Shown: positions 30,702 through 45,597 of the stretch, one piece after another | Numbering within the stretch: position 1 is the stretch's first letter | Layout: each line of letters starts with the position of its first letter | From: Streptomyces durmitorensis | GTDB taxonomy: Bacteria; Actinomycetota; Actinomycetes; Streptomycetales; Streptomycetaceae | Direction: 5' to 3' | DNA length: 64,000 bases | NCBI RefSeq assembly: GCF_023498005.1 | Contig: NZ_CP097289.1 | Location: 9,176,001-9,240,000 of the forward strand | Made by a program: the position numbers and the translations under genes | Notes under the pieces: generated by a model | Database searches by the model: none | Told to the model about the DNA's origin: nothing | The model's input: the letters and a program-made list of their open reading frames with translations, nothing else

Positions 30702-30736
30702 GGTGGGGCGGCAAGGGAATCCCTTGCCGCCCCACC
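30702..30736. terminator. Perfect bidirectional terminator
   Basis: GGTGGGGCGGCAAGGG (30702-30717) pairs perfectly over 16 bp with CCCTTGCCGCCCCACC (30721-30736) around an AAT loop, between the convergent PucR and GAPDH genes. Confidence 0.9.
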
Positions 30737-30755
30737 GCGGGGTCGTGCCGCCGTA

Positions 30756-32210
30756 TCAGGCCACCGGCACCGGGTACGTCGGGTACTCCACCCCGGAGAC
30801 GTGCTGGACGACGCGGATCACCTGGCACGAGTAGCCGAACTCGTTGTCGTACCAGAGGTAGAGGATCGCGTTGTCGCCGTCGACCTTGGTCGCGCCCGCG
30901 TCGACGATCGACGCGTGACGGGAGCCGACGAAGTCCATGGAGACGGCGTCGGGGGCGGTCGTGAAGTCGATCTGTCGCTTCAGCGGCGAGTGCAGCGAGA
31001 TGTCGCGGAGGTGGTCGAGAACCTCCTCGCGGGTCGTCTCGCGGCCCAGGCGCAGGCTCAGGATGGCGATCGAGACGTCCGGGACGGGGACGCGGATCGA
31101 GCTGCCGGTGATCGGCGCCTTCAGGTCGGGCAGCGCCTTGGCGACGGCCGAGGCCGCACCGGTCTCGGTGATCACCATGTTGAGCGGCGCGGAGCGGCCG
31201 CGGCGGTCGGCCTTGTGGAAGTTGTCCAGGAGGTTCTGGTCGTTCGTGAACGAGTGGACGGTCTCCACGTGGCCGCGCAGCACGCCGTACTCGTCGTCCA
31301 TGGCCTTCAGGGGCGGGGCGATCGCGTTCGTGGTGCAGGAGGCGCAGGACAGGATCTGCTCGTCCGGCTTGATCGTGTCGTGGTTGACGCCGTGCACGAT
31401 GTTCGGGACGTCGCCCTTGCCCGGCGCGGTCAGGACGACCTTGTCGACACCGGGGCGCAGGTGCTTGGAGAGCCCCTCGCGGTCGCGCCACTTGCCGGTG
31501 TTGTCGATGAGGATGGCGTCCTTGATGCCGTACGCCGTGTAGTCGACCTCGGAGGGGTCGTTGGCGTAGATCACCTTGATCGCGTTGCCGTTGGCGATGA
31601 TCGTGCTGGTCGCCTCGTCCACGGTGATCGTGCCCTGGAACTGGCCGTGGATGGAGTCGCGGCGCAGCAGCGAGGCGCGCTTGACCAAGTCCTCGACGTC
31701 CCGCCCGCCGCTCTGGCGGACGACGACGGCGCGCAGGCGCAGTCCGTTGCCCGAACCGGCCTTCTCGATGAGCAGGCGGGCGACGAGGCGGCCGATGCGG
31801 CCGAAGCCGTAGAGGACGACGTCGCGTCCCTCGCGGCTCTCGATCTTGTTCTCGCCCGTGGCGCCGGCGACGGCCTCGGCGGTGAACTCCGCGACCGACA
31901 GGCCGCGGTCGTCGGCCCTGTACGTCTCGGCGAGCAGGCCCACGTCGATCTGCGAAGGGCCGAGATCGAGCGTGGTGAGGGCCTGCAGGATCGGCAGCGT
32001 GTCGGTGACGGAGAGTTCCTCACCGGCTATCTGCCGGGCGAATCGGTGGGTCTTCAGGAGGCTGACCACCGACTTGTTCACCAAGGAGCGGCTGTGGAGC
32101 AGGACGGTGACGTCCCGCTCCCGGTGCAGCTTCCCGATGATCGGGATCATCGACTCCGCGATCTCCTCGCGGTTCTTCCAGTTGGTGAACGAGTCGTCAT
32201 TGACAGTCAC
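30756..32210 (-). CDS. gap: Glyceraldehyde-3-phosphate dehydrogenase, long form
   Basis: 484 residues, about 130 longer than classical GAPDH owing to an N-terminal helical extension (residues 1-125). The NAD-binding Rossmann start is VVLYGFGRIGRLVARLL. The catalytic cysteine is Cys292 in SCASCTTNAIAP, and the C-terminus has LYLWYDNEFGYSCQVIR. It catalyses glycolytic or gluconeogenic interconversion of glyceraldehyde-3-phosphate and 1,3-bisphosphoglycerate. This long form is a second GAPDH type in Streptomyces, beside the short one in the glycolytic operon. It stands alone with a terminator behind it. Confidence 0.93.
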   Translation of the reverse strand: MTVNDDSFTNWKNREEIAESMIPIIGKLHRERDVTVLLHSRSLVNKSVVSLLKTHRFARQIAGEELSVTDTLPILQALTTLDLGPSQIDVGLLAETYRADDRGLSVAEFTAEAVAGATGENKIESREGRDVVLYGFGRIGRLVARLLIEKAGSGNGLRLRAVVVRQSGGRDVEDLVKRASLLRRDSIHGQFQGTITVDEATSTIIANGNAIKVIYANDPSEVDYTAYGIKDAILIDNTGKWRDREGLSKHLRPGVDKVVLTAPGKGDVPNIVHGVNHDTIKPDEQILSCASCTTNAIAPPLKAMDDEYGVLRGHVETVHSFTNDQNLLDNFHKADRRGRSAPLNMVITETGAASAVAKALPDLKAPITGSSIRVPVPDVSIAILSLRLGRETTREEVLDHLRDISLHSPLKRQIDFTTAPDAVSMDFVGSRHASIVDAGATKVDGDNAILYLWYDNEFGYSCQVIRVVQHVSGVEYPTYPVPVA

Positions 32211-32324
32211 AGGTTTATCTTTCGAGCTAGGCGGCGCTCATATGCTAACCCGATGCCACTTTTGATCTTGCAATGGGTGCCGCCTGCCCGCGCTCCAGAG
32301 CGGATTCATCGCCCGAGAAGGGAT

Positions 32325-33293
32325 TCAGAGGGAAACGGCGACGGCGTTGAAGGTCGTGCCGGGCTCCTGCGGGCTGGTGAAGCGGGCGTTGACGAGGTAG
32401 AGGCGATCGCCCCAGCGGGCCGCCGTGGTGGGGATGTCGAAGCGGGGGTCGGTGATCGTGCGGCGCAGGGTGGCGGTGCGGGCCCCGGCGTCGAGTTCGA
32501 ACACGCTGATCAGGTTCAGGCGGTTCTGTACGACGTAGAGGGTGCGGCCGATGCGCAGGAGGCCGTCGCCGTTGACCACGCTGTCCGCTCCGGCCAGGGT
32601 GATCTCGCTGGCGTGCCCGGTCTTGAGGTGTACGCGGTAGAGCTTGCCCGGTGAGCTGCTGACGACGATCAGTCCCCGGCGGTCGGGGGTGTCCACGATG
32701 CCGTTGGCGTTGATGACGTCCGGTGTCTGCACCCAGTCGCCGCCGAGCGGCAGCGCGCGCACCGTGCCCTTGCGGCCGCGGGGCACTCCGTAGAGGACGC
32801 CGTCGCGCGAGTCGGTGAACCAGGCACGGTCGCCGAGCAGGGTGACGTCGTTGATGAAGTGGCCTGCCGCCTCCGTCAGTTGATACGTGGCCACCAGCCT
32901 GCCGCTGCGGGTGTCCAGGACCCGCGCGACTCCGGTGTTCCCGGCGACGTAGAGCAGGCCGTCGTCGTCCAGCTTCAGGCCGACGGCCACCGTGCCGGTG
33001 GCTCCCTCGAAGAAGACCTCGCCCCGGCCGGTGCGCAGGTCGGTGCGGTGGATGGCGCCGTTGGCGCGCGAGCCCATGTACGCGTACGGCTTTGTGCCGA
33101 TGGCGATTCCCTCGGGGAGGAAGCCGTCCGGGAGCGGGAACTCGGTGGGCCATCTGGAGCCCTGCGCTGCGGTGGCGGCGCCTGCCGTTCCGGCGCCGGT
33201 CGCCACCGCGAGAGCCGCGACGGTGGCGCCGCCGAGGACGGTGCGACGGGACGGCTGGGGCTGATTGCGGTGATCATGGTGATCGCGGGTCAT
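32325..33293 (-). CDS. Tat-exported SMP-30/gluconolactonase-like beta-propeller protein
   Basis: 322 residues from the ATG giving MTRDHHDHRNQPQPSRRTVL. The twin-arginine signal (SRRTVLGGATVAALAVATGA) predicts folded export. The mature part has repeating blades (GTVAVGLKLDDDGLLYVAGN; GLIVVSSSPGKLYRVHL; DSVVNGDGLLRIGRTLYVV) like SMP-30/NHL-type six-bladed propellers. It may be a lactonase or a binding protein. No catalytic assignment is secure. The frame extends upstream to 33557, but that part lacks coding character. Confidence 0.8.
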   Translation of the reverse strand: MTRDHHDHRNQPQPSRRTVLGGATVAALAVATGAGTAGAATAAQGSRWPTEFPLPDGFLPEGIAIGTKPYAYMGSRANGAIHRTDLRTGRGEVFFEGATGTVAVGLKLDDDGLLYVAGNTGVARVLDTRSGRLVATYQLTEAAGHFINDVTLLGDRAWFTDSRDGVLYGVPRGRKGTVRALPLGGDWVQTPDVINANGIVDTPDRRGLIVVSSSPGKLYRVHLKTGHASEITLAGADSVVNGDGLLRIGRTLYVVQNRLNLISVFELDAGARTATLRRTITDPRFDIPTTAARWGDRLYLVNARFTSPQEPGTTFNAVAVSL

Positions 33294-33576
33294 GGTTCCG
33301 GGCCTCCGTGAAGAGCGGGGATGGGAGTCTGCGAACGGGGCGACGCGACAACTCGACACAACGCGACAACGCGACGGACTTGGTGCACTGAGTGCGCTCT
33401 GCTCGAAGCGCTGAGCGAGCTCTGCTCGAACTCGGTTGCGAACTCGGTGAGTTGACAACGCGGCGTCGCCTGCGGGAGTTCCCTCACGCCCCGCTCGTAT
33501 CTCCACGCGCCCCGAAGGGCGGTGACCCCTCGCAGGGCCGCGCGCCCTGCCGGGCACAAGTCAAACCTTGCCTACG

Positions 33577-33605
33577 TGACCCCATAAGCTGGCCTTATGA
33601 GGTCA
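33577..33605. promoter_or_regulatory. Long symmetrical operator-like dyad
   Basis: Arms TGACCcCATAAG (33577-33588) and CTTATGaGGTCA (33594-33605) mirror each other with one non-pairing base inside each arm and a 5-nt centre. The form is that of a dimeric or tetrameric repressor site rather than a terminator. It lies 88 nt before the ferredoxin reductase start and may also act on the divergent gene. Confidence 0.6.
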
Positions 33606-33627
33606 TAGACCCGGCCCGCGTACTAAC

Positions 33628-33646
33628 TTAGGATTGCCTTAGTTTA
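33628..33646. promoter_or_regulatory. Possible DtxR/DmdR iron box
   Basis: TTAGGATTGCCTTAGTTTA agrees with the actinobacterial iron-box consensus (TTAGGTTAGGCTAACCTAA) at 12 of 19 positions by my hand count, strongest in the left half. It is 47 nt before the ferredoxin reductase start, and a metal-chelate uptake operon follows downstream. The match is too weak to be firm. Confidence 0.35.
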
Positions 33647-33692
33647 GGCTTCCCCACGAGCCCCATGTCTTCGCTCGAAGGGAAACCTGATC

Positions 33693-35057
33693 ATGTCTCG
33701 CCCTCTGCGGGTAGCCGTTGTCGGAGCCGGTCCGGCCGGCATCTACGCCGCCGACGCGCTGCTGAAATCCGCAGTGGCGGTCGAGCCCGGTGTGTCGATC
33801 GACCTCTTTGAGCGGATGCCCGCGCCCTTCGGCCTCATCCGCTACGGCGTCGCCCCCGACCACCCCCGGATCAAGGGCATCGTCACGGCCCTGCATCAGG
33901 TCCTCGACAAGCCTCAGATCCGCTTCTTCGGCAATGTCGACTACCCGAACGACATCGACCTCGACGACCTGCGCAGCTTCTACGACGCGGTGATCTTCTC
34001 CACCGGCGCCACGGCCGACCGGGCCCTCGACATCCCCGGTATCGAGCTCGACGGCTCGTTCGGCGCCGCGGACTTCGTCTCCTGGTACGACGGGCACCCG
34101 GACGTGCCGCGCACCTGGCCGCTCGACGCGGAGAAGGTCGCGGTCCTCGGCGTCGGCAACGTGGCGCTCGACGTGGCTCGCATCCTGGCCAAGACCGCGG
34201 AAGAGCTCCTGTCGACCGAGATCCCGCCGAACGTCCACGAGGGCCTCAAGGCCAACAAGGCGCGCGAGGTCCACGTCTTCGGCCGTCGCGGCCCCGCGCA
34301 GGCCAAGTTCAGCCCCATGGAGCTGCGGGAGCTCGACCACTCCCCGAACATCGAGGTCATCGTCGACCCCGAGGACATCGACTACGACGACGGCTCGATC
34401 GCCACCCGGCGCGGCAACAAGCAGGCCGACATGGTCGCCAAGACCCTCGAGAACTGGGCGATCCGCGACGCGGGCGACCGCCCGCACAAGCTGTTCCTGC
34501 ACTTCTTCGAGTCGCCGACCGAGATCCTCGGCGAGGACGGCCGGGTCGTCGGCCTGCGCACCGAGCGCACCGCCCTCGACGGCACCGGCAACGTCAAGGG
34601 AACCGGCGAGTTCAAGGACTGGGACCTCGGCGCCGTCTACCGCGCCGTGGGCTACCTCTCCGACGAGCTGCCCAAGCTGCCCTGGGACGTCGCGTCGGGC
34701 ACGGTGCCCGACAAGGGCGGCCGGGTCATCGAGGAGACCGGGGAGCACCTGCAGTCGACGTACGTCACCGGCTGGATCCGCCGCGGCCCCGTCGGCCTGA
34801 TCGGTCACACCAAGGGCGACGCGAACGAGACGGTGGCCAGCCTCCTGGACGACCACGCGAACGCCCGCCTGCACACGCCCACGGCCCCCGACCCGTCGGC
34901 GGTGGAAGCCTTCCTCGGCGAGCGGAACGTCCGCTTCACCACGTGGGAGGGCTGGTACCGCCTCGACGCCGCGGAGAAGGCCCTCGGCGAGGCGGAGGAC
35001 CGTGAGCGCGTGAAGATCGTCGAGCGCGAGGACATGCTCAAGGCGAGCGGCGCCTAG
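33693..35057 (+). CDS. fprA: Ferredoxin/adrenodoxin-type NADP+ reductase (FprA-like)
   Basis: 454 residues. The FAD-binding motif is VAVVGAGPAGIYAADALL (residues 7-24), followed by the family's APFGLIRYGVAPDHPRIK. The NADP site is VAVLGVGNVALDVARIL (about 150-166) and the C-terminus has TGWIRRGPVGLIGHTKGDAN. It passes electrons from NADPH to ferredoxins, for P450s or other oxidative enzymes, and FprA-type enzymes are linked to iron-limited metabolism. A perfect hairpin follows the stop. Confidence 0.93.
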   Translation: MSRPLRVAVVGAGPAGIYAADALLKSAVAVEPGVSIDLFERMPAPFGLIRYGVAPDHPRIKGIVTALHQVLDKPQIRFFGNVDYPNDIDLDDLRSFYDAVIFSTGATADRALDIPGIELDGSFGAADFVSWYDGHPDVPRTWPLDAEKVAVLGVGNVALDVARILAKTAEELLSTEIPPNVHEGLKANKAREVHVFGRRGPAQAKFSPMELRELDHSPNIEVIVDPEDIDYDDGSIATRRGNKQADMVAKTLENWAIRDAGDRPHKLFLHFFESPTEILGEDGRVVGLRTERTALDGTGNVKGTGEFKDWDLGAVYRAVGYLSDELPKLPWDVASGTVPDKGGRVIEETGEHLQSTYVTGWIRRGPVGLIGHTKGDANETVASLLDDHANARLHTPTAPDPSAVEAFLGERNVRFTTWEGWYRLDAAEKALGEAEDRERVKIVEREDMLKASGA

Positions 35058-35162
35058 GCCGCTTGAACACCGAGGACTGAGAAAGCTCCCCCAGAAGTCA
35101 CACAGCCCGGCTCCCCGCCCGGGAACCAGAAGCCACCCGCAGCCGACCACTGGTGCGCAAGT

Positions 35163-35201
35163 CCCGTACGCACGCGGCACATCCAGCCGCGTGCGTACGG
35201 G
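35163..35201 (+). terminator. Perfect terminator hairpin after fprA-like gene
   Basis: CCCGTACGCACGCGGC (35163-35178) and GCCGCGTGCGTACGGG (35186-35201) form a 16-bp perfect stem with a 7-nt loop, ending 34 nt before the next start. It could be a terminator or a read-through control point ahead of the uptake/biosynthesis operon. Confidence 0.85.
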
Positions 35202-35235
35202 CCGGAACAGCCCACTGGAGCGAGGTCGCGGCAGC

Positions 35236-35979
35236 ATGCACTGGTACGAGGACGACGGATTCTGGTCCGACTTCTCCGAGACGATGTTCTCCGAGCAGCG
35301 GCGTGCGGAGACAGCCGAGATCGTCGCGCACTCGCCGCTGCTCGGGTTCCCGGCGGGCAGCCGCGTACTTGACCTGTGCTGCGGGCCCGGCCTGTACCTG
35401 GTGCCGCTGGCCCGCCGCGGCTACACGGTCACGGGCGTGGACCTCAGCGCGGAGCTCCTGGAGCGAGCCCGCGTCGTGTGCGAGGACGCCGCGGCCGATG
35501 TCCGCCTGCTCCGGGCGGACATGCTCACGCACGTCGAGCCGCAGTCGTACGACGCCGTGCTCAACGTCTTCACCTCCTTCGGCTACTTCGACGACGCGCA
35601 GGACAACTTCCAGGTGCTGCGCAACGCCCACGACTCGCTGGTGCCGGGCGGGCAGCTGCTGATCGACGTGATGGGCAAAGAAGTGCTCGCCGGCTGGATC
35701 GGCCGCCCCCAGATCGTCGAACTCGACGGCGCCTACGTGGTGCAGCGCGATACCGTCCTGGACAGCTGGACCCGGCTGCGGACCGACTGGACGCTCGTAC
35801 GCGACGGGGTCGCGCGCGAAGCCTCGATCACCTCCTTCCTCTACAGCGCGGCCGAGCTGCGTGCCCTCTTCGAAGACGCCGGCTTCACCGACGTGGAGTG
35901 CTTCGGCGGCTTCGACGGCGCGCCCTACGACCACCACTCGCGGCGTCTGATCGTGCGAGGAACCAAGCCCGTGCAGTGA
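35236..35979 (+). CDS. SAM-dependent methyltransferase (2), head of metal-chelate locus
   Basis: 247 residues from the ATG giving MHWYEDDGFWSDFSETMF; an upstream in-frame ATG at 35191 would start inside the terminator stem. Motif I is RVLDLCCGPGLYLVPLARRG (about 44-63), then TGVDLSAELLERAR and PGGQLLIDVMGKE. It is a class I methyltransferase whose N-terminus (WYEDDGFW) recurs in small-molecule methyltransferases. It lies 119 nt upstream of the ABC/PLP/ATP-grasp operon on the same strand, so a role in tailoring that operon's product is plausible. Confidence 0.85.
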   Translation: MHWYEDDGFWSDFSETMFSEQRRAETAEIVAHSPLLGFPAGSRVLDLCCGPGLYLVPLARRGYTVTGVDLSAELLERARVVCEDAAADVRLLRADMLTHVEPQSYDAVLNVFTSFGYFDDAQDNFQVLRNAHDSLVPGGQLLIDVMGKEVLAGWIGRPQIVELDGAYVVQRDTVLDSWTRLRTDWTLVRDGVAREASITSFLYSAAELRALFEDAGFTDVECFGGFDGAPYDHHSRRLIVRGTKPVQ

Positions 35980-36098
35980 CCGGGCAGTTCGTGAATCTCC
36001 GGGAACCCGGCGGCGACGCCCGCCGACTACTGGATCGTGCCGCACCCGCGCCGGGGCGGCCGCATCGCTGCGAACTGTCCGATGGGTGAAGGGACTTC

Positions 36099-37202
36099 AT
36101 GACCGAGGCCACAACAGGGACCGCCTCCCCGGAGGCAGCCCCCTACGAGCCGACGGCGGGCAAGGCGGGCCGCGGACGGCTCGTGACCACCTTGACGGTG
36201 CTCTCCGTGACACTGGTGCTCTCCGTGCTCGCCGGAATCGCCCTCGGCCCGACCGTCGTGCCGCTCGGGGACGTCGTGCGTTTCCTGACTGCCGCTCTCA
36301 CCGGCGGCAGCATCGGGGCGGACGAGGTGAGCGGCTACTCCATCGTCTGGCACGTGCGCACCCCACGGGTACTGCTCGCCGCCGTGGTCGGGGCGGGGCT
36401 CGCGGTCGTCGGCGTCGCCATCCAGGCGCTGGTGCGCAACGCCCTCGCCGACCCGTTCGTCCTCGGCATCTCGTCCGGCGCGTCGGTCGGAGCCACCGCG
36501 GTCGTGGTGTTCGGGGTCTTCGCGAGCCTGGGTGTCTTCGCCCTGTCCGCCGCCGCGTTCCTCGGGGCGCTCGGCGCCACCGTTCTGGTGTACCTGGCGG
36601 CGCGCGGACCGCTCGGCCTGACGCCGCTGCGTCTCGTCCTCACCGGTGTCGCGCTGGCATACGGGTTCCAGGCGCTGATGAGCGTCCTCGTCTTCCTCTC
36701 CCCGAACGGCCAGGCCGCCCGCACGGTCTTGTTCTGGCTCCTCGGCAGTCTCGGCTCGGCGTCCTGGGAGTCGCTGCCCCTCGCGGCAGGCGCCGTCCTG
36801 GTGACGGTCGTGGTGCTGCTGCGCCAGAGCCGGTCCCTGGACGTGCTGTCCCTTGGGGACGAGACCGCGGCCAGCCTGGGCGTGGACGCGGAGGCACTGC
36901 GGCGCCGCCTCTTCCTCCTCACGGCGGCGGCCACCGGTCTCATCGTCGCGGTCAGCGGCGCGATCGGCTTCGTCGGGCTCGTCCTGCCGCACGTCGTGCG
37001 CATCCTGGTGGGCTCGACACACCGCAGGGTCCTTGCCGTCGCGCCGCTCGCCGGTGCCTGCTTCCTGGTCTGGGTCGACCTCGTGGCCCGCACCGCGTTC
37101 GCCCCCGAGGAGCTGCCGCTCGGGGTCATCACCGCGCTCATCGGCGTACCGGTGTTCATCGTGCTGATGCGCCGCCGCGGCTATCTGTTCGGAGGGCGCT
37201 AG
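36099..37202 (+). CDS. FecCD-family ABC permease (metal-chelate or cobalamin type)
   Basis: 367 residues with about ten membrane spans. The FecCD signatures are present: HVRTPRVLLAAVVGAGLAVV, ALVRNALADPFVLGISSGAS, and the ATPase-contact region GAIGFVGLVLPHVVRILVG. It forms the membrane channel (as a homodimer, since only one permease gene is present) for import of an iron-siderophore, haem or corrinoid-like ligand. The ATPase gene begins right after its stop. Confidence 0.92.
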   Translation: MTEATTGTASPEAAPYEPTAGKAGRGRLVTTLTVLSVTLVLSVLAGIALGPTVVPLGDVVRFLTAALTGGSIGADEVSGYSIVWHVRTPRVLLAAVVGAGLAVVGVAIQALVRNALADPFVLGISSGASVGATAVVVFGVFASLGVFALSAAAFLGALGATVLVYLAARGPLGLTPLRLVLTGVALAYGFQALMSVLVFLSPNGQAARTVLFWLLGSLGSASWESLPLAAGAVLVTVVVLLRQSRSLDVLSLGDETAASLGVDAEALRRRLFLLTAAATGLIVAVSGAIGFVGLVLPHVVRILVGSTHRRVLAVAPLAGACFLVWVDLVARTAFAPEELPLGVITALIGVPVFIVLMRRRGYLFGGR

Positions 37203-38018
37203 ATGACCCTCGTACTGCGGGAGCTCTCGGTCGAGGCCGCGGGGCGCGCCCTGGTCGACCGGCTGAACATCGAGGTGGAGGCAGGGCGGATCGTCGGGGT
37301 CGTCGGCCCGAACGGCAGCGGCAAGTCCACCGCACTGCGCTGCGTCTACCGCGCGCTCAAGCCAACTTCGGGAGCCGTGCTCCTGGACGGCACCGACCTG
37401 GCGTCGCTCACACTGCGCGACAGCGCCCGGTCGATCGCCGCTCTCACCCAGGAGAGCCACACCGAACTCGACTTCACGGTCGACGAAGTCGTGGCCCTCG
37501 GCCGCGCCCCGCACGCGAGCGGCAACCATCCCCTCACCGCACGCGAACGCGCCCTGTGCCGCGAGGCGATGGACCGCCTCGACGTCACCCACCTCGCGGA
37601 CCGCAGCGTGCTCACCCTCTCCGGCGGCGAGCGGCAGCGCGTACTCGTGGCACGCGCCCTCGTCCAGGAACCCCGCGTCCTGGTCCTGGACGAGCCCACC
37701 AACCACCTCGACATCCGCCACCAGGTGGAACTCCTCTCCTTCCTGCGCGGATCGGGCCTCACCGTGCTCACGGCCCTGCACGACCTCAATCTGGCGGCCG
37801 CGGCCTGCGACAGCATCGCCGTCCTGAGCTCCGGCTCCCTGGTCACCACGGGCAGCCCGGCACAGGTCCTGAACCCCGAGCTGATCCGCAAGGTGTTCGG
37901 CGTCGACGCCACCGTCGTGCACCACCCGCGCACCGGGACGCCCCAACTCGTCTACGACCTCGCCCCCACCGGCACCCCGGCACCCGCCGACGCCCTGGCA
38001 GAAGGACCGCACTCATGA
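37203..38018 (+). CDS. FecE-type ABC transporter ATPase
   Basis: 271 residues. Walker A is VVGPNGSGKSTALRC (about 33-47), the signature is TLSGGERQRVLVARAL (about 138-153), and Walker B is RVLVLDEPTNHLDIRHQVEL, with the switch His in ALHDLNLAA. The length and TNHLDIRHQ segment are typical of iron-chelate/cobalamin importers. The start immediately follows the permease stop, and its end overlaps the binding protein (ATGA). Confidence 0.94.
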   Translation: MTLVLRELSVEAAGRALVDRLNIEVEAGRIVGVVGPNGSGKSTALRCVYRALKPTSGAVLLDGTDLASLTLRDSARSIAALTQESHTELDFTVDEVVALGRAPHASGNHPLTARERALCREAMDRLDVTHLADRSVLTLSGGERQRVLVARALVQEPRVLVLDEPTNHLDIRHQVELLSFLRGSGLTVLTALHDLNLAAAACDSIAVLSSGSLVTTGSPAQVLNPELIRKVFGVDATVVHHPRTGTPQLVYDLAPTGTPAPADALAEGPHS

Positions 38019-39022
38019 ACCGACCACCGCTGCCCCGCACCCTGGCAGCCGCCGTGCTGCTCACGACCGGGCTCCTGACCACCGGCTGCGGCGCCGAGGT
38101 CGAGCCGACGGCGAAGAACAAGGCGGAGACGGTCACCGTCAACAACTGCGGCAAGGACGTCACGTACACCCGTCCCGAGCGTCCGGTGGCCTACGACGTC
38201 AGTGGCGCCGAGAAGATGTTCTCCCTCGGTCTCGCCGACCGGATGCGCGGCTACGTCATGAACAAGCTCGGCGACCCCTCCATCAAGGGCTCGCCCTGGC
38301 GCACGGACTACGCCGACGTGGAGCGCCTGGGCACCGAGCGCATCACCCGGGAGATCGTGGTCGACGCCAAGGCCGACTTCGTCCTCGCCGGGTGGAACTC
38401 CGGCTTCAGCGAGGAGCGCGGCATCACGCCCGCCCTCCTGGACAAGGTCGGGTCCGCCAGCTATCTGCACACCGAGACATGCTGGGACTACGGCGACAAG
38501 AGCGTCGACGTCACGCCCCTTGAGGCGCTCTACACCGACCTGGACAACCTGGGCCGGATCTTCGGCGTGGAGAAGCGGGCCGAGAAGGTCGTCACCGACC
38601 TCAAGGGGCGCGTCACCGCCCTGAAGAAGACCTGGCCCGAGAAGGGCGACCCGGCCAAGGTCTTCGTCTACGACTCGGGGACCGACCAGCCCTTCACCGC
38701 AGGGCGCCATGCCGCACCGAACGACATCATCAAGGCAGCGGGCGCGACGAACGTCTTCGACGGCCTCGACAAGGGCTGGACGACGGTGGGCTGGGAACCG
38801 GTCATCAAGGCGAAGCCCGAGGTCATCGTCATCATCGACTACGCGGACCAGCCCGCCAAGGAGAAGATCGCCTACCTGAAGTCGCTCCCCGGCCTGAAGT
38901 CGGTCCCGGCCGTGAAGGAGGGCCGCTTCTTCGTCATGTCCTACGGCGACGCCGTCAGCGGCCCGCGCAACGTCAAGGGCGCCGAGGACCTGGGCGGCTA
39001 CCTCCGGTCGGTCGGGCGGTGA
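38015..39022 (+). CDS. Metal-chelate-type ABC substrate-binding lipoprotein
   Basis: 335 residues. The signal peptide ends with lipobox LLTTGCG (Cys about 25). The mature part is a FecB/BtuF-type two-lobe protein with the rigid helix, beginning NCGKDVTYTRPERPVAYDVS and including GWEPVIKAKPEVIVIIDYAD near the C-terminus. Such proteins bind ferric siderophores, haem, corrinoids or related chelates. It couples to the ATPase and to the PLP enzyme by 4-nt overlaps, so import and biosynthesis are one transcript. Confidence 0.92.
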   Translation: MNRPPLPRTLAAAVLLTTGLLTTGCGAEVEPTAKNKAETVTVNNCGKDVTYTRPERPVAYDVSGAEKMFSLGLADRMRGYVMNKLGDPSIKGSPWRTDYADVERLGTERITREIVVDAKADFVLAGWNSGFSEERGITPALLDKVGSASYLHTETCWDYGDKSVDVTPLEALYTDLDNLGRIFGVEKRAEKVVTDLKGRVTALKKTWPEKGDPAKVFVYDSGTDQPFTAGRHAAPNDIIKAAGATNVFDGLDKGWTTVGWEPVIKAKPEVIVIIDYADQPAKEKIAYLKSLPGLKSVPAVKEGRFFVMSYGDAVSGPRNVKGAEDLGGYLRSVGR

Positions 39023-40116
39023 CCCCCTTGCGCATGGCAGCGGCCCCCGCGGCCACCGTCCACGGGCACATCACCGACGCGATGAAAGCCCCCGACCTGC
39101 TGCGGCTCTCCGACAACGTCGTCCTGGCACGCTTCGAGACGATGAAGGTGTACGCGGCGCTCGGCGCGGTCCGCACCCTCCTCGAACGCGGCACCGTACG
39201 GCCCGGCCAGACCCTCGTGGACAGCTCAAGCGGCATTTACGCCCTTGCCCTCGCCATGGCCTGTCACCGCTACGGCCTCGGCTGCCACATCGTCGCCTCC
39301 ACCACCGTCGACGCCGCGATGCGCGCCCAGTTGGAGATCCTCGGCGCGACCGTGGACCAGATGCCGCCCTCGGACAGCCTGCGGCTCGACCAGGAGCGGC
39401 GGGTGCGGCGGGTGCGGCAACTGCTCGTCGAACGCGGCGACCTGCACTGGATGCGGCAGTACCACGACGGCGTCCACTACGCCGGCTACGAGGAGTTCGC
39501 GGACCTGGTCGACGCCGCCCTGCCCGACGCCCCGCTGACCGTGGTCGGAGCCGTCGGCACCGGTGCCTCCACCGGCGGACTCGTCCAACCGCTGCGCGAA
39601 CGCGGCCGTGAGGTACGGCTGTTGGGGCTTCAGCCCTTCGGCAGCGTCACCTTCGGCAGCGAGGACTTCAGCGACCCCGAGGCGATCATCGCCGGGATCG
39701 GCAGCTCGATCCCCTTCGACAACGTCCGCCACGACCTGTACGACACCCTCCACTGGGTCGACTTCCGGCACGCCATGGCGGGAGCCGTCGATCTGCTGCG
39801 CGCCCACGCGGTGTTCGCGGGCCTCTCCACCGGGGCGGCCCACCTAGTCACGGCCTGGGAGGCGGCCCGCAACCCGGACCGTATGCATCTGGTGATCGGC
39901 GCCGACACGGGACACCGCTACACCGAGCGGGTCTTCTCCCGTCACCAGGAGGCCCTCGACCCGCGCACCCTCAAGCCGCACCAGATCACCGACCTGGCCG
40001 ACCTCGCCCTGCCGTGGTCGGCGATGGAGTGGAACCGGCGCAGCTACGACGTACGCACGAAGAAGCACGAGGACGTACGCACCAAGAAGCACGAGAAGGA
40101 GGGGAAGGCATCGTGA
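39019..40116 (+). CDS. PLP-dependent enzyme of the cysteine synthase / SbnA fold
   Basis: 365 residues. The fold-II PLP elements are divergent but recognisable: candidate Schiff-base lysine in ARFETMKVYAALGA (about residue 43), an asparagine-poor loop VDSSSGIYALALAMA in place of the usual SSGNTG, and the phosphate-binding glycine stretch VVGAVGTGASTGGLV. Relatives make 2,3-diaminopropionate, cysteine or cystathionine-type amino acids by beta-replacement. The missing NPxGSxKxR consensus means the reaction is uncertain. The C-terminus has two copies of DVRTKKHE. It overlaps both neighbours by 4 nt. Confidence 0.78.
   Translation: MTPLRMAAAPAATVHGHITDAMKAPDLLRLSDNVVLARFETMKVYAALGAVRTLLERGTVRPGQTLVDSSSGIYALALAMACHRYGLGCHIVASTTVDAAMRAQLEILGATVDQMPPSDSLRLDQERRVRRVRQLLVERGDLHWMRQYHDGVHYAGYEEFADLVDAALPDAPLTVVGAVGTGASTGGLVQPLRERGREVRLLGLQPFGSVTFGSEDFSDPEAIIAGIGSSIPFDNVRHDLYDTLHWVDFRHAMAGAVDLLRAHAVFAGLSTGAAHLVTAWEAARNPDRMHLVIGADTGHRYTERVFSRHQEALDPRTLKPHQITDLADLALPWSAMEWNRRSYDVRTKKHEDVRTKKHEKEGKAS
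40048..40095 (+). repeat. 24-nt in-frame tandem duplication in PLP enzyme gene
   Basis: Two 24-base units (40048-40071 and 40072-40095) differ by one base and encode DVRTKKHE twice at the enzyme's C-terminus, directly before the overlap with the ATP-grasp start. It looks like a recent in-frame duplication. Confidence 0.85.
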
Positions 40117-41339
40117 CGATCGCCGCCCTGGAAGCACTCACCTTCGGCCTCGGACGTCTGGTGGAGGCGGCCGGTGCCGCCGGGCACCGGCTGTGTCTGC
40201 TCACGGGCGACCGAGCCGTCTACCGGCATGAACTGGACCGCCTGGAACCGGGAGCACTCGACATCGTCGACGTCGACACCCGTGACACGGCCGCGTCCGC
40301 CGCGGCCCTGGCCGCGGTGCCCGGCCTGAAGGGGCTCATCAACTCGACCGACACCTGGAGCGTGCCGGGCGCCGACCTCGCCGCCGAACTCGGCCTGCCG
40401 GGGCCCGACCCGGCCGCGGTCCGCCTCCTGCGGGACAAATCCCGGGTGCGCAACCTCCTCCACGAGCAGGACCTGAGCCGCGGCCCCGGCCTCACGATCC
40501 CGGCCGACCCCTCGGCGGCCGACGAGGTGCTCCAGCGGATCGGCCTGCCGGTGGTCCTCAAGGACTCGGCGGGCACCTCGTCGCGCAACGTCTGGCTGGT
40601 CCGCGACGAGCGGCAGCTGCACACCGCTCTCCGCGAGGCCGCCCAACGCCCCTTCGCCGGGGGGCTGTTCGCGGAACCCTTCTTCGCCGGGCCCGTCTAC
40701 AGCGCGGAGACGCTCAGCTGGGCGGGCGAGACGAAGCTCCTGGGCGTGCTCAGCCGGCAGATGTCCTCCGAGCCCTCCGTCCGGGAGGAGGCCGCGGCCT
40801 TCCCCGTCGCCCTGCCGGAACCGGAGTTCGCCCTCATCGAGGACTGGGTGGGGCGCGTCTTGAGGACGGCGGACCACGACGCGGACTTCGCACACGTCGA
40901 GTTCGTCCTCACCACCGACGGTCCTCAGCTCGTGGAGATCAACCGTCGCATCGGCGGCGCACTCGTCGGAGAGGCACTGTGCCGCGCCCTGCGCACGAAT
41001 GTGTACGACGCGACGATCGCCGTGGCACTGGGCCTGCGCCCCGCCCTGCTCGACGCACCGGCGGCCACGGGCCCCGCCACGGGATTCGTCCTCGTCTACC
41101 CCGACCGGCCGGGCACCCTCACCGGATGGACCGGCCTCGACGGCCTCGCCGCCTTCCCCGGCTCGCCCGAGTGGTATCCCACCGCGGCCCCCGGCGACCG
41201 CCTGGAGCACGTGAACGACCAGCGCGGCTGCACCGGGATCGTCCTCGCCGAGGGCGTGACCGCGGAACTGGCCCTGCACCGTGCGCTCAGCGCGGCCGGG
41301 AGCATACGGCCGCTCGTCGCCGCCCACGCCCCGGAGTGA
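40113..41339 (+). CDS. ATP-grasp ligase (amino-acid/peptide ligase type)
   Basis: 408 residues from the GTG that overlaps the PLP stop (GTGA), with GGAGGGG ribosome site. The ATP-grasp fold appears as LPVVLKDSAGTSSRNVWLV (ATP-binding lysine, about 150-168), AHVEFVLTTDG and the metal-binding LVEINRRIGGALVG (about 275-288). That Glu-x-Asn-x-Arg...GG pattern is shared with L-amino-acid and dipeptide ligases. It would join an amino acid, perhaps made by the PLP enzyme, to a carboxylate with ATP. It couples to the MFS gene by GTGA. Confidence 0.88.
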   Translation: MTIAALEALTFGLGRLVEAAGAAGHRLCLLTGDRAVYRHELDRLEPGALDIVDVDTRDTAASAAALAAVPGLKGLINSTDTWSVPGADLAAELGLPGPDPAAVRLLRDKSRVRNLLHEQDLSRGPGLTIPADPSAADEVLQRIGLPVVLKDSAGTSSRNVWLVRDERQLHTALREAAQRPFAGGLFAEPFFAGPVYSAETLSWAGETKLLGVLSRQMSSEPSVREEAAAFPVALPEPEFALIEDWVGRVLRTADHDADFAHVEFVLTTDGPQLVEINRRIGGALVGEALCRALRTNVYDATIAVALGLRPALLDAPAATGPATGFVLVYPDRPGTLTGWTGLDGLAAFPGSPEWYPTAAPGDRLEHVNDQRGCTGIVLAEGVTAELALHRALSAAGSIRPLVAAHAPE

Positions 41340-42571
41340 CGCTCCTCGGGAAGCCGCGCGGACGCCTGCGATCCGGCTTCGCGCGGCTGACCGGGCCGCA
41401 ACGGTTCCTGCTCGCCGGGTCGTTCCTGATCCCGCTCGGCAGCTTCGCCGTTCTGCCCTTCATGTCGGTGCTGCTCCACGAGCGGCTCGGCATGGGGCTC
41501 GGCACGGTCGGCGTCGTACTCGCCGTCGCCTCGCTGGTGCAGTTCTCGGGCGGTGCGGTGGGCGGCGCGGTCGCCGAGCGCATCGGGCTGCGGCGCACGA
41601 TGCTGCTCGCCCTGGTGATCCGCACGGCGGGGTTCGGCTGCTTCCTGCCCGGCCTGCGCCACCCGGCCGCCGCCGTCCTCGCCCTCTTCCTGGTGTCCGT
41701 CGGCGCCGCGCTCTATCTGCCCGCCAACAAGGCGTACTTGATACACGAGGTCGACGAGGAGCGGCGCCCCCTGCTGCTGTCCGCGAGCGGCTCGGCGCTG
41801 AACGCGGGCATCGCCCTGGGGCCGCTGGCGGCGGCACCCTTCGTCCTGAGCGCATCGGCAGGACTCTTCGCCGCGGTGACCGTGCTGTTCGCGGTGATCA
41901 CGGCGGGCCATGCGCTGCTGCCCGCGGAGGGCCCCGAGCGCGGCCGGAGCGACAGGGCCGGACAGGAACAACCCGCGCACCGGGAAAGCGCGTTCGCCGG
42001 TCTCGCGGTGCTGCCCTTCGCGACCACCGTCCTGAGCCTGTACGTCTTCATGTTCTTCCAGCACTACCTCGCGCTGTACGCGGTGCCCCGCACCTCGACG
42101 ACGTACTACGGCCTTGTCCTCGCGCTCTACGCGTTCCTGCTCGTCGTCGCGCAGCTCCTCCTCGCGGACCGGATCGCGCGCCTGCCCTACGCCCGCGCCC
42201 TGTGGATCGGCTTCGGCGCGATGGCCGCAGGCATGGCCATGCTCGCCGTCGGCAGCCACGCCGCGATCCTCGCCGGAGCCCTGCTCGTCTGCGTCGGCGA
42301 GATCGTCCTGTTCTTCAAGAACGACCTCGAAGCCCTGGCCCGGTCGCGCCGCGCACCCGCCGTCGTCTTCGGTCACCAGCGCCTCGCGGCCGGGATCGGC
42401 GCCTTCGTCAGCGGAGTCGCCGGAGGCGAGGGCTACCAGCTGGCCGAACGCACAGGCGGTGCGGGCCAGTTCTGGGTCGCCGTCGCCGCGCAGTGCGTGC
42501 TGCTGCCCCTGCTCCTGAGGCGCTGGTCCCGCGGGTCCGGCCGGTCGGCCGTCACAGGCCGAGGTCGCTGA
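41336..42571 (+). CDS. MFS transporter, likely product exporter
   Basis: 411 residues from a GTG overlapping the ATP-grasp stop. About 12 hydrophobic segments are seen, with the cytosolic loop [20 protein letters not shown] in the expected MFS position. It is the last gene of the operon. Since importer, ligase and MFS exporter share a transcript, export of the assembled molecule is the simplest role, as CntE-type MFS proteins do for metallophores; this is inference. The 3' end overlaps the convergent DUF1348 gene by 20 nt. Confidence 0.88.
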
Positions 42572-43019
42572 GCCCGGGGTGGTCGTCGGGGCGGCGGCCG
42601 AGCGGCCAGTGGTACGTGCGGTCGGACTCCTGGATGGGCAGGTCGTTGATGCAGGCGTGCCGGACGCGCATCAGGCCGTCGTCGTCGAATTCCCAGTTCT
42701 CGTTGCCGTACGAGCGGTACCAGTGGCCGGAGTCGTCGTGCCATTCGTAGGCGAAGCGCACCGCGATGCGGTGGCCGTCGTGCGCCCACAGCTCCTTGAT
42801 GAGGCGGTAGTCGAGCTCCCGGTCCCACTTGCGGGACAGGAAGGCGACGATCGCCTCGCGCCCCGTGACGAACTCCGCGCGGTTCCGCCAGCGGGAGTCC
42901 TTGCTGTAGGCGAGGGAGACCTTCTCGGGATCGCGGGAGTTCCAGCCGTCCTCGGCGAGGCGAACCTTCTCGGCCGCGGTCTCCCGGGTGAAGGGCGGGA
43001 CGGGGGGTCGTGTGGTCAT
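42552..43019 (-). CDS. DUF1348 / NTF2-like (SnoaL-fold) protein
   Basis: 155 residues. The sequence [40 protein letters not shown] and [20 protein letters not shown] is typical of DUF1348, a cone-shaped NTF2-like fold. Members are small cytosolic proteins, often annotated as hydrolase or isomerase-like, without a settled function. The gene is divergent from a TetR regulator across a region with three identical-core operators, so it is a likely target of that repressor. Confidence 0.88.
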
Positions 43020-43047
43020 GGCTCTCTCCTACACGTCGCACAGTCGC

Positions 43048-43063
43048 GAGAACGGTCGTTCTC
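43048..43063. promoter_or_regulatory. TetR operator copy 1
   Basis: GAGAACGGTCGTTCTC is symmetrical except for its two central bases. It is the copy nearest the DUF1348 start, 29 nt upstream, probably over or next to that promoter's start point. Confidence 0.8.
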
Positions 43064-43084
43064 CGGCGAGGGAGTCCACGGTAG

Positions 43085-43100
43085 GAGAACGGTCGTTCTC
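43085..43100. promoter_or_regulatory. TetR operator copy 2
   Basis: This is the same 16-mer, GAGAACGGTCGTTCTC, in the same orientation as copy 1 and 37 nt away from it. It is central in the divergent region and could influence both promoters. Confidence 0.8.
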
Positions 43101-43140
43101 GCGCAATGATGCGGGCGCGCCCAGGGCCGTAGTAGGGTCG

Positions 43141-43156
43141 GAGAACGACCGTTCTC
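43141..43156. promoter_or_regulatory. TetR operator copy 3
   Basis: GAGAACGACCGTTCTC is the exact reverse complement of copies 1 and 2, starting 56 nt after copy 2 and lying 48 nt before the TetR start, so autoregulation is likely. Confidence 0.8.
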
Positions 43157-43203
43157 GCCCCCAGTTCCCGCCCCGGTCCCCGTCCTCGTCCCTTGGAGCT
43201 CGC

Positions 43204-43788
43204 ATGGATCGCGCCGAAGCGGAAGTCAGACTCCTTGACGCCGCCGAGGAGCTCTTCTACGAGCGCGGGATCCAGGCCGTGGGCATGGACCAGGTGCGTG
43301 CGGCCTCGGGCGTCTCGCTCAAGCGGCTGTATCAGGTCTACCCCTCGAAATCGGAGCTCGTCCTCGCCTGCCTGGAGCGCCGCGACCGCCGCTGGCGGAG
43401 CCGGCTCGCCGAGTACGCGGAGAGCGTGCCGGGCGGGGTGGTGGAGCGCGTCCTCGCGGTCTACGACTGGCTCTACGAGTGGTTCTGCGAGCCGGACTTC
43501 CGGGGCTGCGCGTTCATCAACTCGTTCGGCGAACTCAGGGCCGCCGACCCGGCGGTGGCCGACGCCGTCCGGGCCCACAAGAGCGCCTTCCACGCCTACA
43601 TGGCGGGACTTGTGGCCGCGGCGGGCGAATCGGGGCAGACTGTCGGCCCGTTGGTCCTGCTCGCGGAGGGGGCCATCACCACGGCCGCGATCACGGGTTC
43701 ACCCGAACCGGCGCGCCAAGCCCGCCTTGGCGCGGCCCAGTTGCTGGCCGCGTGGCAACCGCCGGTCACTCGACAGGAAGAAGGCTGA
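43204..43788 (+). CDS. TetR-family regulator
   Basis: 194 residues from the ATG giving MDRAEAEVRLLDAAEELFYE. The TetR HTH (about 8-52) is GIQAVGMDQVRAASGVSLKR followed by LYQVYPSKSELV. The ligand domain carries DWLYEWFCEPDFRGCAFINS, common in a broad AcrR-like subgroup. Three palindromes with GAGAACG/CGTTCTC arms lie between it and the divergent DUF1348 gene. It also overlaps the downstream F420-type gene (TGATG), so that gene is probably in the regulon. Confidence 0.92.
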   Translation: MDRAEAEVRLLDAAEELFYERGIQAVGMDQVRAASGVSLKRLYQVYPSKSELVLACLERRDRRWRSRLAEYAESVPGGVVERVLAVYDWLYEWFCEPDFRGCAFINSFGELRAADPAVADAVRAHKSAFHAYMAGLVAAAGESGQTVGPLVLLAEGAITTAAITGSPEPARQARLGAAQLLAAWQPPVTRQEEG

Positions 43789-44216
43789 TGGCCAAGACGT
43801 ATCGCATCGGTTTCGGCACGCGCCTGATCAACGGCGTGTTCCGGACGATGACCCGGTTCGGGATGGGCAAGGGCTACCGCTACATCCTGACCGTGCGCGG
43901 CAGGAAGTCGGGCCGTCCGTTCTCCACCCCGGTCGACGTGATGTCAGCCGGGGGCGAGCGCTGGCTCGTCGGCGCCTACGGCGTGAGCAACTGGGTGCGC
44001 AACGCCCGCGTGGCCGGTCAGGTCGACCTCAGCAGGGGCGGCAGGTCCGAGACCGTGCGCGTGGTCGAGCTGGGCCCCGAGGAGAGCGTCCCCGTCCTTC
44101 GCCAGTACTGGCGCGAAGTACCCGTCACCCGCCCCTACTTCGACGTGACGGGCGACTCGACGGACGAGGAGTTCGCCGCCGAGTCGGTACGTCATCCGGT
44201 GTTCCGCCTGGTCTAG
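43788..44216 (+). CDS. Deazaflavin (F420)-dependent nitroreductase-family protein
   Basis: 142 residues, with the ATG overlapping the TetR stop. The split-barrel DDN-type fold is indicated by YRYILTVRGRKSGRPFSTPV, VDVMSAGGERWLVGAYG and VSNWVRNARVAGQVDLSRGG. Actinobacterial members use F420H2 to reduce quinones or similar acceptors. Coupling to the TetR gene suggests induction by the same signal, possibly a redox-active compound. It ends one base before the convergent amylase stop. Confidence 0.87.
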   Translation: MAKTYRIGFGTRLINGVFRTMTRFGMGKGYRYILTVRGRKSGRPFSTPVDVMSAGGERWLVGAYGVSNWVRNARVAGQVDLSRGGRSETVRVVELGPEESVPVLRQYWREVPVTRPYFDVTGDSTDEEFAAESVRHPVFRLV

Positions 44217-44217
44217 A

Positions 44218-45597
44218 TCAGCCGGTCTTGGCGCCGGTGTGCAGTGCCAGGGCGCTGCGGGCGGGCAAGGTGGTCTCGATCTTCCCGTCGTCCCCGACGG
44301 TGACGGTGCTGCCGTCGCAGCTGTCCGGGGACGCCTTGGCGACATTGCAGTACGTGCCGCCGGGCAGGGACGTCGTGAACGTCTGGGTCAGCTCGCCGTC
44401 GCCGTTGTTGAGGGCGACGAACCCCTTGTCCCCGCGGCCGAACGCGAGGGCGCTGCCGCCGTTGTCCCACCAGTCGGTCAGCTCCGCGGCGCCCACCTCG
44501 TTGCGGAACCCGACCAGGCCGGTGACCGCCTGCTGGGTGTGCGTGTTCGTCCAGCCGCTTGCGCCGCTGGGCGGGCCCGCGTCCTTGTCGGACCACTCGT
44601 AGCCGGAGTACACGTTCGGTGAGCCGTAGGGGGACGCGAGCATGAAGACGTTGGCCAGGGCGTAGGTCGCGCCGTCCTTGTAGGTGAGCGTCGAGCCACC
44701 CCGCTCGGTGTCCCAGTTGTCGACGAACGTACGGGCCGAGCCGCTGCCCAGTTTGCCGTCGGCGACCGACTTCAGCTGCGCGATGTTCCCGCCCTGGAAG
44801 GCACTCTTGAGGTGCCCGCCGTAGCGGAACTCGTCGACGTCCCCGATGCCGGTGTACTCGTCGGGCTGGACGGCCTCGCCGCCTCCGTGGATGACCTCCG
44901 AGACCCAGAACCCGGGGTCGCTCATCTTGCCCTTGATGGCGGCGACGTCGTCGGCGGCCATGTGCTTGGCGGCATCGATGCGGAAGCCGTCCACACCCAG
45001 GGACCGCAGATCGTCGAGGTACGCGGCGATGGTGGTGCGCACCGCGTCGCTGCCCGTGTCGAGGTCGGCAAGGCCCACCAGTTCGCAGTTCTGGACGTTG
45101 TCGCGGTTGGTGTAGTCGTTGATGCTCGTGCGGCAGGTGTGGAAGTCCGCGTCCTGGAAGTAGCCGGGATACTCGTACTTGCCGTACTGCGTGCCGCCGG
45201 TGCCCGTTCCCGCGCCGGCCGCCATGTGGTTGATGACGGCGTCCGCGATGACCTTGACCCCTGCCTGGTGGCAGGCGTCGACCATGCTCTTGAAGGAGGC
45301 GCGGTCGCCCAGGCGGCCCGCGAGCTGGTAACTGACGGGCTGGTACGAGGTCCACCACTGGTCGCCCTGTATGTGCTCGGTGGCGGGCGACACCTGGACG
45401 TAGCCGTAGCCCGCGGGGCCGAGCTCGCCGGCGCATGCCTTGCCCACATCCGCGTACGGCCGCTCGAACATGGTGGCGGTGACGGTCTTGTCGCCCGGCG
45501 GTGTCGCCTGCGACTGCGAGGGCGCGAACGTCGCCAGGCCGGCCGCGGCCAGGACCCCGGCCGATGTGGCTCCCAGCAGGCGGGAACGGTGCTGCAT
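44218..45597 (-). CDS. Secreted alpha-amylase (GH13)
   Basis: 459 residues. The Sec signal is [20 protein letters not shown]... with cleavage near SQSQATPPG. The GH13 barrel is clear: [11 protein letters not shown] (region I), [13 protein letters not shown] with the nucleophile Asp (region II), [11 protein letters not shown] with the acid Glu (region III) and [11 protein letters not shown] (region IV, Trp where many amylases have His). A C-terminal beta domain follows, but there is no CBM20 starch-binding domain. It hydrolyses starch outside the cell. An imperfect MalR/LacI-like sequence lies upstream. Confidence 0.95.

What the first reader, a model, noticed from the sequence alone, without database searches (positions are those of the whole stretch)
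35236..42571. Coupled import/ligation/export operon: candidate undescribed metallophore or peptide system
Six genes from 36099 to 42571 either abut or overlap by 4 nt: FecCD permease, ATPase, binding lipoprotein, divergent cysteine-synthase-fold PLP enzyme, ATP-grasp ligase, MFS exporter. A methyltransferase precedes them. Known families: FecBCD-type importers take up metal chelates; SbnA-like enzymes make unusual amino acids; ATP-grasp ligases join them; MFS proteins export such products. Inference: a small, NRPS- and NIS-free pathway makes, exports and re-imports a chelator. The PLP active-site loops deviate from the SbnA consensus, so the product should be new or unusual.
Basis: partly seen in the sequence, partly recalled or inferred. 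Interest (0 to 1): 0.78.

Follow-up and report, generated by a model that had tools for sequence, protein, structure and literature searches.

The report
Putative copper-scavenger operon in Streptomyces
A set of seven neighbouring bacterial genes looks like a complete kit for making, releasing and taking back a small metal-grabbing molecule, and its control sequence points to copper shortage as the trigger, which would make it a new kind of copper-scavenging system.

Summary
The gene set is real: FecCD permease, ATPase, lipoprotein, PLP enzyme, ATP-grasp ligase and MFS protein (36099-42571), abutting or overlapping by 4 nt, after a methyltransferase (35236-35979). The order methyltransferase-permease-ATPase-lipoprotein-PLP-ligase recurs in 21 of the 80 best named relatives, mainly Amycolatopsis, Streptomyces and Kibdelosporangium. 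ECF-sigma-type promoters (GGGAAC-N17-CGACYACTGG) precede the methyltransferase and the permease; they are the only two exact matches in the 9.86-Mb genome. The candidate sigma factor is closest to SigC, which in M. tuberculosis drives a copper ATPase gene and an isonitrile (chalkophore) operon. Here the SigC-like gene is unlinked but follows a copper-type P-ATPase; in two other genomes a like promoter precedes isonitrile-synthase genes. Best reading: an NRPS- and NIS-free metallophore operon, most likely for copper. A sister clade with the same enzymes lacks this promoter and carries cobalamin riboswitches (7 of 7 loci), suggesting cobalt there. The chemistry is inferred: an SbnA-like PLP enzyme joins activated Ser/Thr to an amino acid such as Asp; the ligase adds another. 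Against: the importer family often occurs without the enzymes, the MFS is not universal, and product, metal and regulator are untested.

The parts
35121..35153 (+). ECF-sigma-type promoter 1 (GGGAAC-N17-CGACCACTGG) before the methyltransferase
   Evidence: one of two exact matches in the whole genome; a relaxed form lies before the methyltransferase in 72 of 82 clade-A loci
35163..35201 (+). 16-bp perfect inverted repeat (7-nt loop) in the presumed 5' leader; absent from the nearest relative L059
35236..35979 (+). SAM-dependent methyltransferase
   Evidence: Methyltransf_25 64.7 bits; conserved in the locus
36001..36033 (+). ECF-sigma-type promoter 2 (GGGAAC-N17-CGACTACTGG) before the permease
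36099..37202 (+). FecCD-type ABC permease
   Evidence: PF01032 292.7 bits; permease tree
37203..38018 (+). ABC ATPase
   Evidence: PF00005 115.7 bits
38015..39022 (+). substrate-binding lipoprotein
   Evidence: PF01497 73.7 bits; lipobox LTTGC by eye
39019..40116 (+). divergent SbnA-like (cysteine-synthase fold) PLP enzyme
   Evidence: PF00291 100.7 bits; profile match to SbnA chains with the lysine aligned
40113..41339 (+). ATP-grasp, amino-acid-ligase-like enzyme with LAL_C2 domain
   Evidence: PF18603 56.8 bits, PF13535 33.7 bits
41336..42571 (+). MFS transporter, presumed exporter
   Evidence: PF07690 80.8 bits

Best explanation
This is a metallophore operon that needs neither NRPS nor NIS enzymes, most likely a copper-acquisition (chalkophore-like) system. 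Shown by sequence: the gene set, its conservation, two ECF-type promoters unique to it in this genome, a SigC-like sigma factor in the genome and its copper-type ATPase neighbour. Inferred: copper shortage activates the SigC-like factor, which transcribes both units. The PLP enzyme replaces the leaving group of an activated Ser or Thr (O-phospho; a GHMP kinase gene often accompanies the PLP gene in sister clades) by the amine of a second amino acid such as Asp, giving an aminopolycarboxylate. The ATP-grasp ligase couples this to another amino acid and the methyltransferase methylates it. The MFS protein exports the product, the lipoprotein-FecCD-ATPase importer takes back the metal complex, and a reductase (ferric-reductase-like or FhuF-like genes lie near some relatives, not near the window operon) may release the metal.
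For: Gene order conserved across actinobacterial families. Promoter: 2 exact matches in G000, both here, about 0.02 expected from base composition; before the methyltransferase, exact form 31 and relaxed form 72 of 82 clade-A loci, against 0 and 18 of 853 other genes in those loci. SigC is the best solved-chain match of the linked factor of L068 (E 3e-23, next 4.9e-9) and of G000's unlinked factor (E 2.6e-25, next non-SigC 1.2e-15). In M. tuberculosis, induced SigC raises ctpB and the nrp operon, and the authors conclude that it prevents copper starvation (PMC7924339, abstract in part and passages). G000's sigma gene follows a P1B-type ATPase gene with GMTCGAC and CPC motifs and a Met/His-rich membrane protein gene. 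ATPase pieces of this kind lie in 11 of 23 other unlinked sigma loci fetched and, in L122, beside the window-type operon itself. A like promoter stands before MFS, asparagine-synthase, P450 and isonitrile-synthase genes in L226 and L228 (PF05141 255.8 bits in L228), with a window-like ABC (63-64%) next to them. SbnA-like profile with the lysine aligned.
Against: No product, metal, binding or expression data. 31 of the 60 genus genomes with a window-like permease have no PLP relative at 57% or more. Only 5 of the 21 loci with the window's order have a window-like MFS gene after the ligase. G000's SigC-like gene is not next to the operon, and 106 of 150 genus genomes have a homologue, many without the PLP operon. 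10 of 82 clade-A loci lack even the relaxed promoter. The sister clade R is under cobalamin riboswitches, which speaks for cobalt, and the permease groups with riboswitch-controlled importers. No GHMP kinase gene was found in the window. The SigC promoter sequence itself was not compared.
Confidence: 0.52

Rival explanations
1. The product is a cobalt chelator (cobaltophore) throughout the family, including the window, and the ECF factor answers to cobalt or corrinoid shortage rather than copper.
For: All 7 clade-R loci have a cobalamin riboswitch before kinase-PLP-ligase-MFS-methyltransferase, 4 of 7 have another before a following ABC, and 2 (L079, L196) have one before a FhuF-like gene. The window permease clade sits in a wider clade (97/94 support) with importers that follow riboswitches. 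DUF364, which I recall as tied to B12 contexts, accompanies clade B.
Against: 0 of 29 clade-A and 0 of 8 clade-B loci scanned carry a cobalamin riboswitch; the sigma family and its ATPase neighbour point to copper.
Confidence: 0.2
2. The enzymes make an amino-acid antimetabolite or dipeptide antibiotic induced by metal shortage and exported by the MFS, and the importer serves other compounds.
For: Distant PLP-ligase homologues (30-36%) include loci with an argininosuccinate-lyase-like gene, one beside NRPS genes (L053), reminiscent of diaminobutyrate supply for peptide antibiotics (recalled; PMC4572928 passages only say that npsG is proposed to act in DABA synthesis). The importer family occurs without the enzymes.
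Against: Importer within the same gene string in 21 of 80 named loci and with its own copy of the promoter in the window.
Confidence: 0.17
3. An iron, zinc or nickel chelator (siderophore, EDDS-like zincophore or nickelophore).
For: FecBCD-type importer; EDDS is a chelator of Amycolatopsis whose structure suggests a route outside NRPS and NIS (PMC4993170 passages); ferric-reductase-like genes beside A2 and R loci; a loose Nur-like palindrome about 330 bp before the methyltransferase in L176.
Against: No Zur or DmdR box in 31 loci scanned (window part 30001-46000); loose Nur-like palindromes in only 5 of the other 30 loci and in the window only at 43741, outside the operon. Zur-box-like sites exist in 3 of 4 Amycolatopsis genomes (up to 2 mismatches), but the scan of their PLP loci found none.
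Confidence: 0.06

Closest known systems
SigC regulon with the isonitrile lipopeptide (nrp) operon of mycobacteria
   Same: SigC-like ECF factor, ctpB-like copper ATPase and a metal-chelator operon as apparent regulon
   Different: No isonitrile synthase or NRPS genes in the window operon; PLP plus ATP-grasp instead; SigC promoter sequence not compared
Staphyloferrin B precursor enzyme SbnA
   Same: PLP fold and aligned lysine; recalled chemistry is O-phosphoserine plus glutamate
   Different: 134 bits against a cut-off of 350; Asn of the substrate loop is Ile; no SbnB or NIS partner among the proteins scanned
[S,S]-EDDS zincophore of Amycolatopsis japonicum
   Same: Amino-acid-derived chelator said to be made outside NRPS and NIS routes (passages)
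   Different: EDDS is Zur-regulated; no Zur box here; EDDS gene content could not be compared
Aspergillomarasmine A
   Same: Proposed product class: Asp with aminopropionate units, preferring Zn, Co, Ni (PMC11091072, abstract and passages)
   Different: Fungal; copper preference not reported in what I saw
BL00235-type L-amino acid ligases
   Same: ATP-grasp and LAL_C2 domains (the latter recalled for BL00235); BL00235 (3vot) is the best solved match, E 3.4e-13
   Different: Substrates unknown; weak similarity

Membership tests
SbnA family (TIGR03945) | Score above the equivalog cut-off (349.95) | tested here: not met
   134.3 bits
SbnA family (TIGR03945) | Schiff-base lysine at the aligned position | tested here: met
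   Profile MK aligned with chain positions 46-47 of SbnA; lysine invariant in alignments of 9 and 11 rows; its role in SbnA is recalled
SbnA family (TIGR03945) | Asn in the substrate loop (TSGNxG) | tested here: not met
   SSGIY in the window and the clade A, B and R rows shown; SSGVY, SSGTY or (S/T)SGTF in several distant ones; SbnA reads TSGNLG
NRPS or NIS siderophore cluster | NRPS or IucA_IucC domains in the operon | tested here: not met
   None among the 10 proteins scanned
EDDS-type zincophore | Zur box near the genes | tested here: not met
   None in 31 loci scanned at up to 3 mismatches
Isonitrile chalkophore | Isonitrile synthase gene in the cluster | tested here: not met
   None among the 10 proteins of the window scanned; present in L228 behind a like promoter
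SigC-type copper-starvation regulon | Sigma factor closest to SigC | tested here: met
   Best solved-chain match is SigC for G000's unlinked and L068's linked factor
SigC-type copper-starvation regulon | Sigma factor transcribes from these promoters in response to copper | not testable with these tools
   Needs run-off transcription and expression data
F420-0 ABC transporter (TIGR03868/03869/03873) | Scores above the cut-offs | tested here: not met
   155.8/392.4, 295.9/437.35, 283.4/372.4 bits
ATP-grasp L-amino acid ligase | ATP-grasp and LAL_C2 domains above cut-off | tested here: met
   33.7 against 27 and 56.8 against 29.4 bits
Cobalamin riboswitch-controlled operon | RF00174 aptamer upstream | tested here: not met
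   None in the window; met in clade R, 7 of 7

The most novel reading that the evidence does not exclude
One small-molecule pathway (PLP enzyme, ATP-grasp ligase, MFS, methyltransferase, FecBCD-type importer) makes a previously unknown class of metallophore that has been rewired between metals: under a SigC-like copper-starvation sigma factor in the window's clade, and under cobalamin riboswitches in a sister clade, where it would be a genetically defined cobaltophore, in some genomes with its own riboswitch-controlled reductase for releasing cobalt.
Probability: 0.28. Interest if true: 0.9.

Novelty: new variant of a known kind. Interest (0 to 1): 0.72.

Why it matters
The bacterial copper-scavenging molecules that I recall (methanobactin, isonitrile lipopeptides, chalkophomycin) come from RiPP or NRPS routes; a short route with its own importer and exporter would be a much simpler kind. 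It is widespread: 462 matching stretches in the species-genome collection, and the 80 best, the only ones listed, are all actinobacterial. A cobalamin-riboswitch-controlled chelator operon would make it testable whether soil bacteria secrete cobalt scavengers; a review of cobalt and B12 does not use the words metallophore, chelator or siderophore in the text held (PMC7689651, passages). I saw no description of such an operon in the listings of my searches (open-access papers only, some listings cut).

Tried and rejected
F420-0 importer reading: NCBIfam matches well below cut-off. Iron and zinc regulation: no DmdR or Zur box. A home-made pattern for cobalamin riboswitches missed true ones and was replaced by Rfam scans. 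AlphaFold model of the PLP enzyme: mean pLDDT 64.8, residues 193-256 below 50, not used. EDDS genes could not be fetched by name; only Zur-box-like sites were sought. The inverted repeat at 35163 was dropped as a regulator because the closest relative lacks it. A phylum-wide sample gave 3 of 296 genomes with a close PLP relative at E <= 1e-60, G000 and two others of its genus, so the sampling there is thin. One search (39 genomes, RF00174) listed only part of its matches, so absence there was not used. Rows dropped: 8 identical upstream regions and 2 loci of low methyltransferase identity set apart; 69 chosen PLP rows out of more; one copy per locus and only uninterrupted stretches in the sigma tree; interrupted or short stretches in the permease tree. 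The unnamed and the named genome sets overlap in part (for example G123 and L119), so their counts must not be added.
Full report
What is there. The window lies in a 9.86-Mb genome; Streptomyces is inferred from its nearest named relatives. Pfam gives FecCD, ABC_tran, Peripla_BP_2, PALP, ATP-grasp_4 with LAL_C2, and MFS_1; no NRPS or NIS domain among the ten proteins scanned.

Two promoters. The region before the methyltransferase in relatives holds a conserved GGGAAC-N17-CGACTACTGG element. In the window it occurs at 35121-35153 and again at 36001-36033, before the permease. In 12 genomes chosen because they carry the operon, an exact-pattern search found 2 matches in G000, both here; 2 in G123; 2 in G128, one of them off the locus; and 1 in each of the other nine; the reversed pattern gave 1 match in all 12 together. 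About 0.02 are expected in G000 from base composition. Within 300 bp before the methyltransferase the exact form lies in 31, and a relaxed form in 72, of 82 clade-A loci, against 0 and 18 of 853 other genes in these loci and 0 of 7 clade-R loci. In Amycolatopsis the element reads GGGAACC-CGACTTGTGG. It has the form of an ECF sigma promoter (general knowledge).

Distribution. Of 150 genus genomes, 24 carry a PLP gene at 67% identity or more (three of these, G031, G092 and G132, belong to clade R; G082 is split) and 27 carry a clade-B gene at 57-61%, with two further split copies; G000 has both kinds. The species collection gave 462 matching stretches, of which the best 80 were kept. In 21 of 80 the order methyltransferase-permease-ATPase-lipoprotein-PLP-ligase is that of the window: L119-L122, L128, L132, L134, L138, L153, L161, L170, L172, L174, L176-L178, L180-L183 and L191; a window-like MFS gene follows the ligase in 5 of these (L119-L122, L161). 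L186, L187 and L190 have methyltransferase, ABC and a GHMP kinase before the PLP gene. A ligase homologue is in the locus in 78 of 80. Many Streptomyces loci (form A2) lack the ABC nearby and have instead a sigma gene, a His/Met-rich membrane protein gene and a ferric-reductase-like gene.

Tree. In a tree of 69 chosen PLP rows, clade R (100/99) and clade B (96/84) are single groups, and the A forms with and without adjacent ABC are mixed within one clade (98/95), sister to R; distant members lie outside. The adjacent ABC was therefore lost or gained more than once.

The importer. The nearest G000 relatives of the permease are the clade-B copy (61-66% by stretch) and two ABCs at 47-49% whose permeases lie about 1.1-1.4 kb after a cobalamin riboswitch. 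In a permease tree the window-type and B-type copies form one clade (100/100) within a wider one (97/94) that also holds riboswitch-controlled importers and leaves out the other G000 FecCD permeases in the tree. Against exclusive linkage: 60 of 150 genus genomes have a permease at 58% or more, and 31 of these have no PLP relative at 57% or more. The five at 85-100% are in G000, G123, G128, G069 and G081; in G081 permease and PLP gene lie on different contigs, the latter starting inside the lipoprotein gene.

The sigma factor. Ten A2 loci first showed an ECF sigma gene beside the operon; it was then found in more A2 loci, in A1 loci L121 and L122, and in Saccharopolyspora, Saccharothrix, Sphaerisporangium and Actinokineospora loci. 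G000's best homologue (53%; next 30%) is unlinked, at 7974104; in the sigma tree it groups with G123's copy and with the linked genes of L131 and L169 (96/85), while linked and unlinked genes are mixed overall. 106 of 150 genus genomes have a homologue at E <= 1e-25, so it is more widespread than the operon. Both the G000 and the L068 factor match SigC best among solved chains. In M. tuberculosis, artificial induction of SigC raised ctpB and the nrp operon, and the authors conclude that it prevents copper starvation (PMC7924339: part of the abstract and passages). In G000 the order is copper-type P1B ATPase, Met/His-rich membrane protein, sigma factor. Such ATPase pieces lie in 12 of 24 other unlinked sigma loci fetched (11 of 23, since L208 and L228 are one place; many stretches are short) and, in L122, beside the PLP operon. 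In L226 and L228 a like promoter precedes an ABC and the set MFS, asparagine synthase, P450 and isonitrile synthase, with a window-like ABC (63-64%) next door (Pfam run on the L228 genes); in L227 the layout looks alike but the isonitrile gene was not checked, and L225 has the sigma gene and the ABC without that set in the stretch read. An isonitrile product of S. thioluteus is a chalkophore (cited in PMC7924339). This is the main ground for choosing copper.

The cobalamin branch. All 7 clade-R loci (L077, L078, L079, L194-L197) have an RF00174 riboswitch just before kinase-PLP-ligase-MFS-methyltransferase; L079, L194, L195 and L196 have another before the following ABC; L079 and L196 have one before a FhuF-like gene, in L079 with a ferredoxin-like gene by eye. 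None of the 29 clade-A and 8 clade-B loci scanned has one. So the same enzymes sit under two different control circuits; the clade-B loci looked at show neither.

Chemistry. The family profile aligns the FETMK lysine with position 47 of the SbnA chain; the substrate loop reads SSGIY where SbnA has TSGNLG. SbnA makes an aminopolycarboxylate from O-phosphoserine and glutamate (recalled). A GHMP kinase gene accompanies the PLP gene in 7 of 7 clade-R, 16 of 23 clade-B and 7 of 12 distant loci, fitting phosphorylated Ser or Thr as substrate; it was not found in the window or in most clade-A loci. L053 has an argininosuccinate-lyase-like gene (Lyase_1 145 bits), which would release fumarate from an aspartate adduct, and L048 a methylaspartate-mutase gene (PF06368 277 bits); both fit an aspartate-type nucleophile. 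No such lyase was among the window proteins scanned, so the adduct would be kept; aspergillomarasmine A, an Asp- and aminopropionate-based compound, prefers Zn, Co and Ni (PMC11091072, abstract and passages). All of this is inference.

Verdict. Real, conserved and specifically controlled. Metallophore reading about 0.75 overall; copper for the window about 0.5; cobalt for the window about 0.2. A new variant of a known kind: metallophore systems are known, this route is not described in what I could search.

Noticed in passing
L039 6974-14897 (G000:C1:2446973 on): G000 carries a second, clade-B operon: GHMP kinase, PLP enzyme, DUF364 protein, MFS, permease, ATPase, lipoprotein, without ATP-grasp and without either regulatory signal found here.
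   Followed up: partly
L226 3940-15933 and L228 4119-15823: Isonitrile-synthase, P450, asparagine-synthase and MFS genes behind a promoter like the window's, with two FecBCD-type importers: possibly a separate copper-chelator cluster.
   Followed up: partly
L196 2432-14485: Five cobalamin riboswitches within about 12 kb.
   Followed up: no
L048 2770-10850: A PLP-ligase-MFS locus with a methylaspartate mutase E subunit gene.
   Followed up: partly
L049 5105-10519: Kinase-PLP-ligase genes beside NRPS genes and a tetrapyrrole-methylase gene (PF00590).
   Followed up: no
L153: Contig titled Rhodococcus rhodnii groups with Kibdelosporangium in the PLP tree and belongs to a 12.4-Mb genome; the label may be wrong.
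   Followed up: no
L184 1-5980 and L198 2150-5837: In Saccharothrix and Actinokineospora a like promoter also lies near a P450 gene and, in L184, before a FhuF-like gene.
   Followed up: partly
window 35163-35201: Perfect 16-bp inverted repeat in the presumed leader of the methyltransferase gene, absent from the nearest relative.
   Followed up: partly
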